This document shows, in pieces, positions 1,858 through 45,480 of a DNA stretch of 47,417 nucleotides. The notes beneath the pieces were generated by a model, which was given only the letters and a program-made list of their open reading frames with translations, did no database searches and was not told the origin of the DNA. Source of the DNA: an uncultured Bacillota bacterium (GTDB lineage: Bacteria > Bacillota > Dethiobacteria > DTU022 > UBA8154); the NCBI GenBank assembly GCA_937973635.1, contig CALJJZ010000027.1, positions 1 to 47,417 on the forward strand, read 5' to 3'. The position numbers and the translations under genes are program-made. Each line of letters opens with the position of its first letter. Position 1 is the first letter of the stretch.

Positions 1858-3180
1858 TTAAATCAAATATTTCATAAACACCGTCGCCGTATAAAAATAG
1901 ATCAGCAGCCCGGTAACGTCTTTAATTGTCGTGACAAAAGGCCCCGAAGTAATGGCCGGGTCAATACCAAAATGGTCGAAAATCATCGGGATAAGCGTAC
2001 CGATGAGCGCAGCCAGAGAGATGGTGATAAACATGGCTATGCCTACCACCACACCGAGCATTGGCCTGCTCCATTGCCAGAGGGACGCAGCCAGGGCAAT
2101 GACAACGCCGTTAATCAGCCCCATGGTGATCCCGATTTTTATCTCCCGCAGGAAATAGCTCCATATATCCTTCTTTTCAATCTCCCCCGTAGCCAAGCCC
2201 CGCACAAAAAGCGTTGATGACTGGGCGCCCACATTGCCCCCCATATCCATGATTACAGGAATAAAAACGGCCAAGATAACAATGGACTGGAGCGTAGCCT
2301 CAAAGGTTCCAATCACGCTGCCGGACAAAAGCCCGCCAAAAAGGCTGATAATCAGCCAGGGCAGCCGTTTGCGCACGATACTGTAGACAGAGGCTTCAAG
2401 GAGATCCACGCTCTCCACCTCACCTGTACCGGTGAGGCGGTAGATATCCTCCGTGGCCTCTTCCTCAATGACGTCGATAATGTCATCTACAGTAATAATA
2501 CCCAGCAGACGCTGTTCTTCATCGACCACCGGCACAGCCAGCAGGTCATAACGGGAAACGAGGCGGGCCACCTCTTCCTGGTCCATATCTACCGGGACGC
2601 TGATCACGTTTTTTAACATGATCTCCTTGAGCAAAGTCCCGTCCTCCGCCGCAATCAGATCCCGTAAAGAGATCACGCCTGTTAACTTTGTCTGATCATT
2701 GATGACATAAACGTAATAGATGATCTCCGCATCAGGGGCCATTTCGCGGAGCCGCGTAATGGCCTCTTCCACTGGAATATCCTCCGGCAGGGCAATAAAA
2801 TCGGTGGTCATAATCCCGCCAGCCGTATCCTCCCGGTAACGGAGCAGCCCCTTAATCTCTTCGGCTTCCTCGTCAATAAGGGAGAGGAGCTCTTTCGCTT
2901 CTTCCGGGGAAAGCTCCCCTAAGAGGTCGGTGGCATCGTCAACGGCCATCTCCTTGAGGATGGAGGAGGCACGGTGTTTGGTTAAAAGGCGCAGCAGGGA
3001 GACCTGGTCAAACTCGTCCATCTCCTGGATGATCAATGCCGCCTCTTCATCGGAAAGAAGCTCGAAAAGCTCTTTGCGCTGCTGGTCATTCAGTTCATCT
3101 ACCAGTTCCGCCAGGTCGCTGGGGTGGGCGCCTTCTTTAATTTTGGCCACAATTTTTTGTAAGACTTTCTGTATGGGCAT
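1858..3180 (-). CDS. mgtE: Magnesium transporter MgtE
   Basis: MgtE is a dimeric Mg2+ channel gated by cytosolic Mg2+. The 440-residue protein has the family layout: a charged helical N domain (residues about 1-125, with LLGELSPEEAKELLSLID), a CBS pair (about 130-255, ending DDIIDVIEEEATEDIYRLTG), and five predicted membrane helices to the C-terminus, including the pore signature PVIMDMGGNVGAQSSTLFVR near 308. Length is normal. It lies about 50 bases beyond the end of the 6S RNA. No M-box riboswitch is seen upstream, since the leader interval is occupied by the 6S RNA gene. Confidence 0.95.
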   Translation of the reverse strand: MPIQKVLQKIVAKIKEGAHPSDLAELVDELNDQQRKELFELLSDEEAALIIQEMDEFDQVSLLRLLTKHRASSILKEMAVDDATDLLGELSPEEAKELLSLIDEEAEEIKGLLRYREDTAGGIMTTDFIALPEDIPVEEAITRLREMAPDAEIIYYVYVINDQTKLTGVISLRDLIAAEDGTLLKEIMLKNVISVPVDMDQEEVARLVSRYDLLAVPVVDEEQRLLGIITVDDIIDVIEEEATEDIYRLTGTGEVESVDLLEASVYSIVRKRLPWLIISLFGGLLSGSVIGTFEATLQSIVILAVFIPVIMDMGGNVGAQSSTLFVRGLATGEIEKKDIWSYFLREIKIGITMGLINGVVIALAASLWQWSRPMLGVVVGIAMFITISLAALIGTLIPMIFDHFGIDPAITSGPFVTTIKDVTGLLIYFYTATVFMKYLI

Positions 3181-3230
3181 AAAAAATCACCCGGCCTTGT
3201 AACTATTTAATTGATGACCATAAAATACAA

Positions 3231-3433
3231 AAAAAAATTAACCCCACTATGCCGTGGGCCGCTGTTTTGAACTGCTCTCGGCAGGTGGGTGCCTTCTTAC
3301 ATGCTTTATAGGTCCCCTTTAAGGGGCATCTATGCTACATATAAAGGCAGGCTCCCTCTTCATTGGTGTTAGCTCAAAACTTATGCGGTTTTACACGCGC
3401 ACAGCAGGGAAAATATTTTCGGCTGACTATTTC
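3231..3433 (-). ncRNA. ssrS: 6S RNA (regulator of sigma-A RNA polymerase)
   Basis: The minus strand of the aspS-mgtE gap folds into the 6S rod. A long irregular closing stem pairs CCCTGCTGTGCGCGTG (3409-3394) with CACGGCATAGTGGGG (about 3256-3242), followed by CCGC/GCGG and GTTTTGA/TTCAAAAC. A large central bubble comes next, then a terminal hairpin in which GCC-TTATATG pairs with CATGTAA-GGC and ATAG-CCCC pairs with GGGG-CTAT. The 3' end runs into a T tract. A matching promoter places the 5' end near 3433, giving about 200 nt, the usual 6S length. In Bacillus subtilis a 6S gene (bsrA) also lies next to aspS. 6S RNA mimics an open promoter and sequesters RNA polymerase. The assignment rests on structure and synteny, not on a covariance search. 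Confidence 0.85.
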
Positions 3434-3439
3434 AACAAT

Positions 3440-3468
3440 AATATAGCACATCCTCGCCGTTATTGCAA
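3440..3468 (-). promoter_or_regulatory. Sigma-A promoter of 6S RNA
   Basis: Minus-strand -35 TTGCAA (3468-3463) and extended -10 TGC-TATATT (TATATT at 3445-3440) are separated by exactly 17 bases. The predicted start near 3433 lies just upstream of the closing stem of the 6S RNA. Confidence 0.8.
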
Positions 3469-3489
3469 GTACTTGCCCCGCTGCGATCA

Positions 3490-5259
3490 TCATTTCCTGC
3501 TTATAGTATAAATATGCAGCTCGCTCAGCTGATGGGGCGATACCGGGGCCGGGGCGCCGGTAAGCAGACAGCTGCCGGCGGCAGTTTTCGGGAAGGGAAT
3601 GACGTCGCGAATGCTCTTGCGGTCGCTCATAAGCATTAAGAGCCGGTCAAAGCCGAAAGCAATACCGCCGTGGGGCGGAGCGCCGTATTTAAACGCTTCC
3701 AGCAAAAAGCCGAATTTGTCTTCAATCTCTGTCTGTGTCAGGCCCAGCAGTTTAAAGACCGTCTCCTGCAGTTCGCGCCGGTGGATACGGATGCTGCCCC
3801 CGGCTATCTCCACGCCGTTATAAACAAGGTCATAGGCCAGGGAACGAACCTTTAGCGGCTCGGTTTCCAGGAGAGGGATATCTTCCTCCCGGGGTGCCGT
3901 AAAGGGATGGTGGTTGGCTGTAAACCTTTTTTCTTCCCGGTCATAAACAAGCAGGGGGAAATCCAGGACCCAAAGCAGCCGATGCTCCCCTGCGGGGATG
4001 AGGTTAAGGCGGCGGGCCAGGTGAAGCCTGAGCTGACCGAGTATTTTTTGGGCATTGTCTTTTTCGTCCGCCACAAAAAGAAAAAGATCGCCGTTTACTC
4101 CAGCCATGCTCTGGCGTATCCTTTCCAGCTGGTCATCCGTAAAAAACTTGGCGATGGGGGTTTTAAAGCCCTCCTCTGTAACAACCATCCAGGCCAGTCC
4201 ACCTGTCCCCCAGGACTGGACAAGGGCCGTCAGGTCATCTAGCTCTTTGCGGCTGAAAGCAGCGCCGCCCTTTACATTGATCCCTTTTACCGAACCGCCC
4301 TGGGCCACGGCGTGGTTAAAAACTTTAAAAGCAGATTCCCCGGCAATCTCAGAGATGTCCTTAAGTTCCAGGCCGAAACGGGTATCGGGCTTATCGCTAC
4401 CGTACCTCTCCATGGCCTCAGCATAAGAAATCGTGGCAAAAGGCGTTTTTAAATCTAGGTCCAGCACCTCCCGGAACAGCCTGGATACCAGAAGTTCCAC
4501 CTCGGCCATGATCTCTTCCCGACTACAGAAAGATAATTCCAGATCTATCTGGGTAAATTCAGGCTGGCGGTCAGCCCGCAAGTCTTCGTCCCGGAAACAG
4601 CGGGCTAGCTGGAAATAACGTTCCACCCCGCTAACCATAAGCAGCTGTTTAAAAAGCTGCGGGGACTGGGGCAGGGCATAAAAATGGCCCGGCGCCGTAC
4701 GGCTGGGCACCAGGTAATCCCGAGCCCCTTCCGGAGTACTGCGGGTCAACATGGGCGTGTCAACCTCCAGGAAGCCCCGTTCGTCCAGGCAGCGGCGCAC
4801 AGCCATAAAAAGACAGTGACGCAAACGTAACATCTCCTGCATCTCCGGCCGGCGCAGATCCAGGTAACGGTAACGCAGGCGCAGGTTTTCGTCGGTATCT
4901 ATGTTATCTTCAATGTAAAAAGGAGGCACCTGGGACCTGTTCAGCACCTCCATGGCCTCCACATTGATCTCAATTTCCCCGCTGGCAAGCCTGGGATTAA
5001 CCGTTTCAGGCGAGCGGGCAATTACTTTGCCCTTGATGGCCAAAACGTACTCGGAACGCAGCTTTTCCGCTTCCTGGAAAAGTTCGCCGTGCCTTTCCAG
5101 GTCAAAAACAAGCTGTACCACCCCGCTGCGGTCTCTTAGGTCAATAAAGAGCAAGCCCCCGTGATCCCTGCGTCCCTGGACCCAGCCGGCAAGTAAAACA
5201 TCTTCGCCGATATTCTTGCGGGTAATTTCCCCGCACCAGTTTGTGCGCCTAAAAGCCAT
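3490..5259 (-). CDS. aspS: Aspartate-tRNA ligase (possibly non-discriminating, Asp/Asn)
   Basis: Class IIb synthetase charging tRNA with aspartate. At about 589 residues it is a bacterial-type enzyme. It has an OB-fold anticodon domain at the N-terminus (GWVQGRRDHGG, residues about 27-40), motif 2 (CFRDEDLRADRQPEFTQ, about 215), a central GAD insertion, and motif 3 (GIAFGFDRLLML, about 535). The His in RRDHGG is the residue typical of non-discriminating bacterial AspRS, where Escherichia coli has Leu, so it may also make Asp-tRNA(Asn) for GatCAB (inference). Three in-frame starts occur; MAFRR at 5259 has AGGTGG about 7 bases upstream and is preferred over 5265. It has its own promoter. Confidence 0.95.
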   Translation of the reverse strand: MAFRRTNWCGEITRKNIGEDVLLAGWVQGRRDHGGLLFIDLRDRSGVVQLVFDLERHGELFQEAEKLRSEYVLAIKGKVIARSPETVNPRLASGEIEINVEAMEVLNRSQVPPFYIEDNIDTDENLRLRYRYLDLRRPEMQEMLRLRHCLFMAVRRCLDERGFLEVDTPMLTRSTPEGARDYLVPSRTAPGHFYALPQSPQLFKQLLMVSGVERYFQLARCFRDEDLRADRQPEFTQIDLELSFCSREEIMAEVELLVSRLFREVLDLDLKTPFATISYAEAMERYGSDKPDTRFGLELKDISEIAGESAFKVFNHAVAQGGSVKGINVKGGAAFSRKELDDLTALVQSWGTGGLAWMVVTEEGFKTPIAKFFTDDQLERIRQSMAGVNGDLFLFVADEKDNAQKILGQLRLHLARRLNLIPAGEHRLLWVLDFPLLVYDREEKRFTANHHPFTAPREEDIPLLETEPLKVRSLAYDLVYNGVEIAGGSIRIHRRELQETVFKLLGLTQTEIEDKFGFLLEAFKYGAPPHGGIAFGFDRLLMLMSDRKSIRDVIPFPKTAAGSCLLTGAPAPVSPHQLSELHIYTISRK

Positions 5260-26446: not shown

Positions 26447-26469
26447 CGCTTATACCCCCTTAAGCCCCG

Positions 26470-26662
26470 TTGAGATAGCGCTCCACCTGGACCTTGGGCT
26501 TAACGGCACGCTCCAGGTGACAGTCCGCAGATTATTTACCGGCGGACCAGCTTTCAGCCCTCCGGTTAAGGCTGAAAACTTCGGCGGCGGCCCCTTTCCC
26601 CCAGTTCACAGGACCGGTCCTCCCCGGGATACTCTTGACCTTCCGCACCTCTACCTCACCCC
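26470..26662 (-). promoter_or_regulatory. Lysine riboswitch (L box)
   Basis: The minus-strand leader reproduces the conserved L-box blocks in order: GTGAGGTAGAGGTGCGGAA, CAAGAGTAT, CTGTGAACTGGGGGAAAGG, CCGCCGAAG, GGAGGGCTGAAAGCTGG, ACTGTCACCTGG and CCAGGTGGAGCGCTATCTC. P1 forms between GAGGTAG and CTATCTC. These match the Bacillus subtilis lysC leader closely at the ligand core. Lysine binding should favour the downstream terminator and shut off lysA-dapF-dapL-asd-dapG. Confidence 0.95.
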
Positions 26663-42890: not shown

Positions 42891-43205
42891 TTAATCTACT
42901 TCCTTTAACCTTTCCAGCAAACGCTCCGCCTGAGGGCTGCAAACATATTTCTGGGCGGCAAAGCGCTCCAGGATTGCCACCTCTTTGCGGTGATCCTTCT
43001 TTTGCCTGTACATGGAGGCAAGCATCTCATAGGGCCAGGGCGCTACCCCCCACTCCCTGGCTTTATCTTCCTTTTCAAGGTCGGAGATATAGCGAAGCAA
43101 TTTCTGCTCTATTTCCTCTTCCTTTTGTTTACAGGGGGCACAGGTCCTCTCTCTGTTAAGCTTCAAAAAAAACCCTTTTTTTCCACAGACAATGCACTTG
43201 GCCAC
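42891..43205 (-). CDS. Small protein with N-terminal zinc-binding Cys pairs, unknown function
   Basis: About 104 residues: AKCIVCGKKGFFLKLN and TCAPCKQKEEEIEQKLL give two CxxC pairs (residues about 4-27), followed by charged helices ending in SPQAERLLERLKEVD. The GTG at 43205 has AAGGAGG at good spacing; the ATG at 43211 is too close to it. It directly follows tRNA-Sec on the same strand (about 55 bases). I recognise no family; the helices may form a TPR-like hairpin. Confidence 0.7.
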   Translation of the reverse strand: MAKCIVCGKKGFFLKLNRERTCAPCKQKEEEIEQKLLRYISDLEKEDKAREWGVAPWPYEMLASMYRQKKDHRKEVAILERFAAQKYVCSPQAERLLERLKEVD

Positions 43206-43260
43206 GCCCATCTCCTCCTTGCCTTGGAATACCTTAGGGTTCTTTTTCTACAAAATAAGA

Positions 43261-43356
43261 TGGCGGGAGTAGATGGGAATCGAACCCACCATGGACCTCG
43301 TCAGCCCACCACCGGATTTGAAGTCCGGGGGCGCCACCAGGCCGCCAGCTACTCCC
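43261..43356 (-). tRNA. selC: tRNA-Sec (anticodon TCA)
   Basis: The 96-base minus-strand sequence has the special tRNA-Sec shape: an 8-bp acceptor stem GGGAGTAG/CTACTCCC, discriminator G, encoded CCA, anticodon loop CTTCAAA with anticodon TCA (43321-43319) on a CCGGA/TCCGG stem, a long variable arm (TGGTGGGCTGACGAGGTCCA region), and T arm GGTGGGTTCGATTCCCATC. It reads UGA as selenocysteine and is the substrate of SelA and SelB encoded 3.4 kb away. Confidence 0.97.
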
Positions 43357-43427: not shown

Positions 43428-43817
43428 GCTAAAAACACCACGAACAGGTATGATGGGAAAAAGCCCACAAGAAAACGAATATGGCCTAAATTAAGGCCAC
43501 GTTTTTATCCATCTTATTGGTTTTTTTCATATTAGCTTTTTTCATCTTGATAATTAATTACTCCTTTGTTGTTGAAATTACACCTTACCCAAGTGACCCT
43601 AACCACACCCCCACAAACCGAAACCTTTTTTATTTTTATTGCAGTTTATCCATTTACCGGGTCAAAGGGCAATTCTGGAGGCTTTGCTCCTGCAGTCGAA
43701 GGTATTGGATCCAGAACAGCCTTTTTGCCTTCCACGCCCCTTTCCTTACCTGCATGCGGACCCACCATTTAAACGCTTCATCACAAAAAGCCAGTCAGAG
43801 CCATATTTTTATTTTAA
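43428..43817. other. Intergenic region between selC and the CARF gene
   Basis: About 390 bases with no array-like repeats and no confident gene. It holds the hairpin at 43482-43506 and, on the minus strand, a short frame from an ATG at about 43767 to a stop near 43645 reading GVEGKKAVLDPIPSTAGAK and on to PVNG. That frame has protein-like composition but no ribosome binding site and no recognised relative, so it could be a gene remnant or chance. Plus-strand frames here look spurious. Confidence 0.4.
43482..43506 (+). terminator. Terminator-like hairpin with no gene to end
   Basis: TGGCCT-aaatta-AGGCCA followed by CGTTTTTAT is a 6-bp hairpin plus T tract reading on the plus strand, yet no plus-strand gene lies upstream of it for more than 900 bases. 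Confidence 0.4.
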
Positions 43818-45191
43818 TCATGTCCCTGGCACCACCTCCCCAAACTGCAAGCTCGCATCAAATCGGCTTTTCTCTTTTATCCCCTCGCAGCAAGCATCAA
43901 CAAACCATTCCACAAACTCCAGCATTTCCCGGCAGGCAGGTTCGTCCACGGGGGTGATGCCGTGGGCCATGAGGGAGTTGTTTCGTTTTTGCAGGTGGCT
44001 TAGCATAGTACTTTTGTACCTCTCAAAAATTTTGCCTACGGGCGTTTCCAGGCGGGCAAGGAGGGTATAATTTTGTATAAGGCCGAGGTCGATGGTGCCA
44101 GTGCGGGGCTCGCGCAGGGCTGCGTACTCTCCCTGCAAGTGGGTGGGGAGTTTGGCTATGTTGAGGTTCCCTGTGTGCAGGGGTTCGTCCCAGCGAAGCA
44201 GGTTTAGCTGGCCGAACATTTCCAGAGCACGGTAGAGGCGGGCCACAGCATCGTCGTAGCGGCCCTGGGCAATGCGGCGGCGGGAATTGAGTATAAGATC
44301 AAAGACGGGATCGAAAGTGAGGAGGTGATGCCGGCCCCGGTAGCCGGTGGCGGCTGCGGCCCGGCTTTCTTCTTTCAGCAACTCGGCCCAGATAGTTTTG
44401 CTCTTAATAATGCGGCCCAAAAACTGGACATATCTTTTAGGGACACTGTCTTTTTCCTGCTTGAAGATGTCGTAAGCTTTGCTATGGTCGAAACGGTCCC
44501 AGGCCTCATAAGCTTCGCAAAGATAGCGGATTTTTTCCAGGCGGTCGTAAAGGTTATCGTCGTAGATGGGCCTTGCTTTGATTTCCTTCAATAAAGAAAG
44601 GCAGGATTGGTAGTGGTAGCCTTGCCAAAGTACCTGCAAGAGCTGCAGTTTTTTTTCCACCATGACGGGGGTATTGTCAATGAGGCGTGCACTCTGGGTA
44701 CCGCTTTCTACTTTTTGTAGGTCGAGGCGACGGCCCGAGACGACGCAGAGGGTGACCTTACCATCGTCCATGGCAGCTGCGGCCAAGCCGGCAGTCATGG
44801 ACTTGGTGCCGCCTGTGTAGTCGGCCAGGATCTCCACGTAGGGGTCTTTGGCCCGCTCTTTCCAGATAATGCGGCTCGCTTCCAGGTAGCAGTTGTTAAT
44901 ATTATCAAAACGGGAAATTCTGACAATGGTATATTGTTCTGGCTCCAAGCCGAGCTGGGCGGCGATGCTGGGGCGGGTTTCCCCTGTTGGAGCGCCGCAA
45001 CTCTGACATGTACAGACCTGGCCGCAGGGTTTGCCAGGACCATCCACGGTGTAATAGCTCCCCAAATGGGATGAGCCCGGTGTATCATCGGAACAAAGAA
45101 AATAGATGAAATCCGGCTTGTTGTGTTTGATCGAGCTTACAAGGGGCTCGTCGGAACCGCCTACGGTCAGGATAAGGACTTTGCGGGGCAT
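43818..45191 (-). CDS. CARF-HEPN protein of the TIGR02710 (Cas02710) family, orphan
   Basis: Proteins of this family bind cyclic oligoadenylate made by Cas10 and activate a HEPN ribonuclease in type III CRISPR immunity. The 457-residue protein has an N-terminal CARF Rossmann domain: KVLILTVGGSDEPLVSSIKH (about residue 4) and the second CARF motif ILADYTGGTKSMTAGLAAAA (about 120-140). A helical C-terminal domain follows, with the HEPN-type catalytic motif RNNSLMAH (Arg about 403, His about 410). AAGGAG seven bases upstream supports the ATG at 45191 over 45221. No cas10, adaptation genes or repeats are nearby, so it either acts in trans or has another signal. Ribonuclease activity is inferred from the motif only. 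Confidence 0.85.
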   Translation of the reverse strand: MPRKVLILTVGGSDEPLVSSIKHNKPDFIYFLCSDDTPGSSHLGSYYTVDGPGKPCGQVCTCQSCGAPTGETRPSIAAQLGLEPEQYTIVRISRFDNINNCYLEASRIIWKERAKDPYVEILADYTGGTKSMTAGLAAAAMDDGKVTLCVVSGRRLDLQKVESGTQSARLIDNTPVMVEKKLQLLQVLWQGYHYQSCLSLLKEIKARPIYDDNLYDRLEKIRYLCEAYEAWDRFDHSKAYDIFKQEKDSVPKRYVQFLGRIIKSKTIWAELLKEESRAAAATGYRGRHHLLTFDPVFDLILNSRRRIAQGRYDDAVARLYRALEMFGQLNLLRWDEPLHTGNLNIAKLPTHLQGEYAALREPRTGTIDLGLIQNYTLLARLETPVGKIFERYKSTMLSHLQKRNNSLMAHGITPVDEPACREMLEFVEWFVDACCEGIKEKSRFDASLQFGEVVPGT

Positions 45192-45480
45192 CTTTAGCTC
45201 CTTGACAGGTATCTTCTCCATTTAAACTTAAAAAGGGGCAAAAATGGTAACAAAGCGTTTGCCGTTTCCAGCTATTTTATTACAGTCAATTCGTATTTTC
45301 TGTTTACTCTCCATGTGCTTGTTTCGCCATATTATGCTCCAATCCCTCTTTTTTTGCAAGGGTATAATCATTTTTTTTTAAAGACCGAGCAAAAGGGTTT
45401 TTTAAGCTAAATGTAGAATTACTAGAGACGACGACCAAACAAACGGTTGGAAAAATATTTCACAGATAGGAGTATTGCCG
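45192..45480. other. Divergent gap between the CARF gene and the methyltransferase operon
   Basis: AT-rich interval of 289 bases. A TATAAT at 45363-45368 points toward the corrinoid gene but has no recognisable -35. No riboswitch was recognised; in particular I see no cobalamin B12 box. A TTGACT box near 45281 on the minus strand may belong to the CARF gene but lacks a -10 at the right distance. Confidence 0.5.

What the first reader, a model, noticed from the sequence alone, without database searches (positions are those of the whole stretch)
43818..45191. Orphan CARF-HEPN effector with no CRISPR neighbours
The gene has both CARF motifs and an intact HEPN Arg-His motif, but the surroundings are selC, housekeeping-like genes and a methyltransferase operon, with no cas10, repeats or defence genes. 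It may be a stand-alone sensor of cyclic oligoadenylates made elsewhere in the genome, or may have been recruited to another nucleotide signal. An RNase gene 460 bases from selC also raises the question of tRNA targets.
Basis: partly seen in the sequence, partly recalled or inferred. Interest (0 to 1): 0.6.

Follow-up and report, generated by a model that had tools for sequence, protein, structure and literature searches.

The report
Csm6-type CRISPR RNase encoded apart
The gene is an intact RNA-cutting enzyme of a well-known CRISPR alarm pathway (Csm6 type); it sits away from the CRISPR genes, but the same genome carries two type III CRISPR systems that can make its likely trigger, so it is an ordinary family member in an unusual place.

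Summary
Window 43818-45191 (-) encodes an intact 457-aa CARF-6H-HEPN protein (TIGR02710, 195 bits; PF09670 HEPN). Its model matches Thermus Csm6 best, and the catalytic Lys, Glu, Arg, Asn and His are all present. There are no cas genes or CRISPR repeats around it.

It is not an orphan in the genome. The genome has a III-B locus (cas10 with GGDD, CRISPR repeats; contig tied to this genus by synteny) and a III-D locus (cas10 with GGDD). Each carries the cA4 sponge/ring nuclease Csx15. No effector was found in the III-B locus. This gene is the genome's only PF09670 (Csm6-type HEPN) gene.

Relatives elsewhere are normally type III effectors: cas10 lies within 10 kb in at least 50 of the best 80, and in 23 of 29 with full flanks.

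The selC adjacency is incidental: genus-mates have different genes at that spot, and no homologue locus scanned has selC.

Best reading: a cOA-activated (probably cA4) Csm6 RNase acting in trans, a case of the inter-locus signalling already proposed by others (PMC11229360). No evidence for another ligand or for tRNA targets. New member of a known kind; low interest.

The parts
43818..45191 (-). csm6-type gene (TIGR02710 / CARF1-HEPN), 457 aa, start ATG 45191
44637..45191 (-). CARF domain (about residues 1-185; TVGGS and YTGGTK motifs, catalytic-Lys equivalent K130)
44457..44639 (-). Csm6 6H linker domain (residues 185-245)
   Evidence: PF22205, 34.7 bits
43905..44303 (-). HEPN RNase domain (residues 297-429) with E324 and the RNNSLMAH motif (R403 to H410)
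   Evidence: PF09670; invariant in the 29-sequence alignment
45198..45203 (-). Shine-Dalgarno-like AAGGAG before ATG 45191
   Evidence: sequence
43481..43500 (-). terminator-like stem (GTGGCC..GGCCAT then T-rich) between the gene and selC; consensus match only
43261..43356 (-). selC (tRNA-Sec), a neighbour, not part of the system

Best explanation
This is a Csm6-type ancillary RNase of type III CRISPR immunity, encoded in trans. A type III complex elsewhere in the genome (III-B on contig C35, III-D on C98) recognises foreign RNA. Its Cas10, which shows no HD nuclease domain, makes cyclic oligoadenylate. The ring, most likely cA4, binds the CARF dimer of this protein and activates the HEPN site, which cuts single-stranded RNA non-specifically. 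The CARF lysine may slowly cleave the ring as a built-in off switch, while Csx15, encoded in both type III loci, holds down background cA4. Shown here: domains, intact catalytic residues, fold match to Thermus Csm6, both Cas10 cyclase motifs and both csx15 genes in the genome, no effector found in the III-B locus, and the type III context of relatives. Inferred: activity, ligand identity, and that this protein serves the III-B and/or III-D signal.
For: Family and residues: TIGR02710 and PF09670 above cut-off; K130, E324, R403, N404 and H410 match TtCsm6 K137, E332, R415, N416 and H422 (alignment; roles in PMC10897365) and are invariant in 29 homologues. Fold: AF2 model pLDDT 89.4; best PDB matches are all Thermus Csm6, including its cA4 complex, E 1e-14. 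Own genome: III-B with cmr1, cmr3-6, cas10 'YGGGDDV', cas1 and repeats, and no CARF effector among the genes scanned; III-D with cas10 'YGGDDL' plus Card1-like and CARF3 genes; csx15 in both; no HD match in either Cas10. C35 belongs to this organism: its other genes match all four genus-mates. Context of relatives: cas10 within 10 kb in at least 50 of 80, 23 of 29 with 8 kb or more on both sides, and independent PF22335 hits 1-8 kb away in 12 of 18 genomes, 11 of them above cut-off. Ligand: Csx15 is cA4-specific (PMC13148439), known ring nucleases are not found with cA6 Csm6 (PMC12409355), and Csx15 also lies in 7 of the 80 relatives' loci.
Against: No biochemistry. Physical linkage to a type III locus is absent, and the contig ends 2.2 kb from the gene, so linkage on that side is untested. 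The closest relative (L071, 41%) sits beside a Cas10 whose GGDD reads NGDE, and another (L060) sits in a decayed III-A locus without cas10, so this branch does lose its cyclase partners at times. C98 is nearly all cas genes with lower GC (48.5%) and no genus-mate match, so its assignment to this genome is less sure.
Confidence: 0.86

Rival explanations
1. A left-over effector: the gene came with a type III locus since lost or moved, still folds, but no longer has a working partner or role.
For: Relatives in decayed loci exist: L060 with csm4, csm5, split cas6 and no cas10 palm domain in the genome. This genome also holds a degenerate CARF fragment on C59. No close homologue in four genus-mates and 18 same-family genomes.
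Against: The frame and all signature residues are intact, composition looks native (GC 54.2%, window 54.3%), and two GGDD Cas10 genes are present.
Confidence: 0.08
2. The protein was recruited to another nucleotide signal (for example a CBASS-type or stress nucleotide), independent of type III CRISPR.
For: Only its separate location, and the ability of CARF-like folds to bind other ligands in general (inference).
Against: The CARF signature, including K130, is conserved with cA4-binding Csm6; relatives are type III effectors; Cas10 cyclases and csx15 are in the same genome.
Confidence: 0.03
3. The selC adjacency is functional: a tRNA- or selenocysteine-linked RNase.
For: About 460 bases between gene and selC on the same strand.
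Against: A different gene lies at this spot in each of three genus-mates; no tRNA-Sec in 57 homologue loci; terminator-like and promoter-like sites separate the two.
Confidence: 0.01

Closest known systems
Thermus thermophilus Csm6 (PDB 5FSH, 8JBB, 8JH1)
   Same: CARF-helical linker-HEPN architecture, best fold match (E 1e-14), catalytic Lys, Glu, Arg, Asn and His in register
   Different: 17-18% identity; Thermus Csm6 is cA4-activated by experiment, this protein is untested; this one has a Cys-bearing CARF loop
TIGR02710 / CARF1-HEPN effectors of type III loci (PADLOC CARF1--CARF_HEPN, Csx1)
   Same: full-length family match at 195 and 406 bits; at most 41% identity to relatives, most of them beside cas10
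   Different: most relatives lie within 10 kb of cas10; this gene lies on a contig without cas genes
[quoted passage not shown]
   Same: an effector-less, HD-less, cyclase-positive type III locus in a genome with another type III locus and effectors elsewhere
   Different: that study is statistical; here the proposed in-trans effector is solitary, outside any cas locus

Membership tests
Csm6 / TIGR02710 CARF-HEPN ribonuclease | match to the curated family models above cut-off | tested here: met
   TIGR02710 195.5 bits, cut-off 83.9; PF09670 91.4, cut-off 27; PF22205 34.6, cut-off 27.6
Csm6 / TIGR02710 CARF-HEPN ribonuclease | CARF ligand motifs including the (S/G)GTK lysine | tested here: met
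   TVGGS and TGGTK130; T126-K130 invariant in 29 sequences
Csm6 / TIGR02710 CARF-HEPN ribonuclease | HEPN R-X4-6-H active site | tested here: met
   RNNSLMAH, R403 to H410, plus E324
Csm6 / TIGR02710 CARF-HEPN ribonuclease | Csm6 fold | tested here: met
   AF2 pLDDT 89.4; top Foldseek hits all Csm6, TM 0.56-0.63 for the Thermus enzyme
Csm6 / TIGR02710 CARF-HEPN ribonuclease | RNase activated by cA4 or cA6 | not testable with these tools
   needs purified protein
Type III CRISPR ancillary effector | a cyclase-competent Cas10 in the same genome | tested here: met
   GGDD in L008:7569-9365 and L009:4071-5834
Type III CRISPR ancillary effector | encoded in or beside a type III locus (typical of the family, not required) | tested here: not met
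   no cas gene or repeat in the window; only 2.2 kb to the contig end on one side

The most novel reading that the evidence does not exclude
A solitary Csm6-type gene, outside any cas locus, is the dedicated RNase effector of a distant III-B locus that kept its cyclase and its Csx15 dampener but has no effector of its own: a split signalling system in which producer and effector are held on separate parts of the chromosome.
Probability: 0.45. Interest if true: 0.35.

Novelty: new member of a known kind. Interest (0 to 1): 0.2.

Why it matters
It is a clean natural case for testing in-trans cOA signalling: one Csm6-type gene apart from cas loci, one III-B locus with no effector found and one effector-bearing III-D locus, both with csx15. 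It also warns against reading 'no CRISPR in the neighbourhood' as 'no CRISPR function' in draft genomes.

Tried and rejected
(1) selC as a conserved or functional partner: rejected, the upstream neighbour of selC differs in each genus-mate where it can be read and homologue loci lack tRNA-Sec. (2) Foreign-island signature: GC (54.2%) and GC3 (64%) match the window, so composition shows nothing; absence from genus and family suggests horizontal gain, or loss elsewhere, without direct proof. No empty site could be shown because the genus-mates' loci diverge upstream of selC. (3) Two further TIGR02578 hits in the genome (C65, C35:104735) as cas10: rejected for C65, a plain HD-domain protein; the C35:104735 hit was weak (21 bits) and not pursued. 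(4) Another intact CARF-HEPN in the genome: only a CARF fragment on C59. (6) The locally built profiles for cas1 and cas6 may drift, so only Cas10 hits over 60 bits and 300 aa were counted. (7) The 2020 CARF classification paper was not in the library.

Full report
What is there. The open frame runs 43818-45221 on the minus strand, and the likely start is the ATG at 45191, six bases after AAGGAG, giving 457 residues. It matches TIGR02710 along nearly its whole length (195 bits, cut-off 83.9), the Csm6 HEPN domain PF09670 and the Csm6 6H domain PF22205, and PADLOC's CARF1--CARF_HEPN model at 406 bits. The neighbours are selC, selA, selB, a ZIP transporter, an MFS transporter, a B12-binding protein and a UroD-type methyltransferase. 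The window holds no CRISPR-like repeat and no other defence match among ten nearby genes. The contig ends 2.2 kb past the gene, so one flank is only partly seen.

Is it functional? An AlphaFold2 model built on 29 sequences has mean pLDDT 89.4, and its best PDB matches are all Csm6, first the Thermus thermophilus enzyme alone and with cA4 (E 1e-14, TM about 0.6). In register with that enzyme (alignment; roles, PMC10897365), the lysine of the CARF pocket (K137) and the HEPN residues E332, R415, N416 and H422 are K130, E324, R403, N404 and H410 here. All five are invariant in the 29-sequence alignment. Activity itself is inferred.

Is it an orphan? In the window, yes; in the genome, no. The draft genome (2.56 Mb, 98 contigs) has two type III loci. 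Contig C35 carries cmr1, cas10, cmr3-6, cas1 and a I-A set, with 37-base CRISPR repeats at its edge that recur on contig C6. Contig C98 carries a III-D set with csx10, cas7 genes, csx19 and cas6, together with a Card1-like CARF nuclease and a CARF3 gene. Both Cas10 proteins keep GGDD, and neither matches an HD domain, so both should depend on signalling. Both loci encode Csx15, which binds cA4 specifically as a sponge or slow ring nuclease (PMC13148439). No CARF effector was found in the III-B locus among the genes scanned. The window gene is the only PF09670 protein in the genome. A second CARF hit on C59 is a fragment without HEPN, running into the tail of another gene. C35 clearly belongs to this organism, since its other genes match all four genus-mates. 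C98 is less sure: its composition is lower in GC and genus-mates lack the locus.

What do its relatives do? A scan of GTDB genomes gave 294 relatives, of which the best 80 were read with up to 10 kb on each side. Cas10 is present in at least 50 of the 80, and in 23 of the 29 with 8 kb or more on both sides. Independent Pfam hits agree in the phylum sample. In the tree the window protein groups at 100/97 support with four sequences of its own phylum. One of these lies in a III-B locus with GGDD (L058). One lies beside a III-D-like Cas10 whose motif has become NGDE (L071). One lies on a short contig (L073). One lies in a decayed III-A locus that has lost cas10 (L060). So the family is an ordinary type III effector, and this branch has been separated from an active cyclase more than once.

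The selC question. In three genus-mates selC is kept, together with the same small Cys-containing gene and the MFS gene nearby. Upstream of selC each has something else: a molybdopterin oxidoreductase (L053), a lipoprotein (L054), a GGDEF/HD-GYP protein (L055). None of 57 homologue loci holds a tRNA-Sec. A terminator-like stem lies between the gene and selC, and a promoter-like site lies before selC (consensus matches only). The adjacency is therefore incidental.

How it most likely works. Foreign RNA bound by a type III complex turns on Cas10, which makes cyclic oligoadenylate; the ring binds this protein's CARF dimer and switches on its HEPN RNase. The ligand is more likely cA4 than cA6: the nearest solved relative uses cA4, Csx15 is cA4-specific and sits in both own loci and in 7 of 80 relatives' loci, and known ring nucleases are not found with cA6 Csm6 (PMC12409355). 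That an effector may serve a cyclase-positive locus elsewhere in the genome was already proposed from statistics on 133 effector-less loci (PMC11229360).

Verdict. It is a new member of a known kind, useful as a test case for in-trans signalling, and of low interest otherwise.

Noticed in passing
window 42891-43211 (-); L053:3715-4074, L054:1330-1680, L055:7760-8122: A small Cys-containing protein with a conserved WGVAPWPYE motif is kept near selC in four species of the genus; no Pfam or NCBIfam match. In L055 it lies 6.4 kb from selC.
   Followed up: partly
L151 (G000:C59) 2635-3784: A CARF domain of the Csm6/Csx1 kind without HEPN runs into a different, HNH-like reading frame; looks like a degenerate remnant of two defence genes, among sulfur-metabolism genes.
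   Followed up: partly
L071:13036-14619: III-D-like Cas10 of Pelotomaculum sp. UBA3102, beside the closest relative of the window protein, reads NGDE where GGDD is expected, so a CARF-HEPN effector sits next to a probably inactive cyclase.
   Followed up: no
L060:6171-10474 (G170): Decayed III-A locus: short HD-like fragment, csm4, csm5, cas6 split in two frames, then an intact CARF-HEPN gene; no Cas10 palm domain found in that genome.
   Followed up: partly
window about 44952-45059 (protein residues 45-80): Conserved VDGxGxPC loop in the CARF domain, followed in part of the family by CxxC (20 and 12 of 77 relatives): a possible metal-binding insertion; lower model confidence there.
   Followed up: partly
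L008:3264-3653 and L009:2361-2756: csx15 in both type III loci of one genome.
   Followed up: partly
L066:9334-10410 (G333): Homologue whose HEPN half is replaced by an unrelated ATPase-like sequence; probably disrupted.
   Followed up: no
window 26468-26661 (-) and 3237-3413 (-): Lysine riboswitch and 6S RNA.
   Followed up: no
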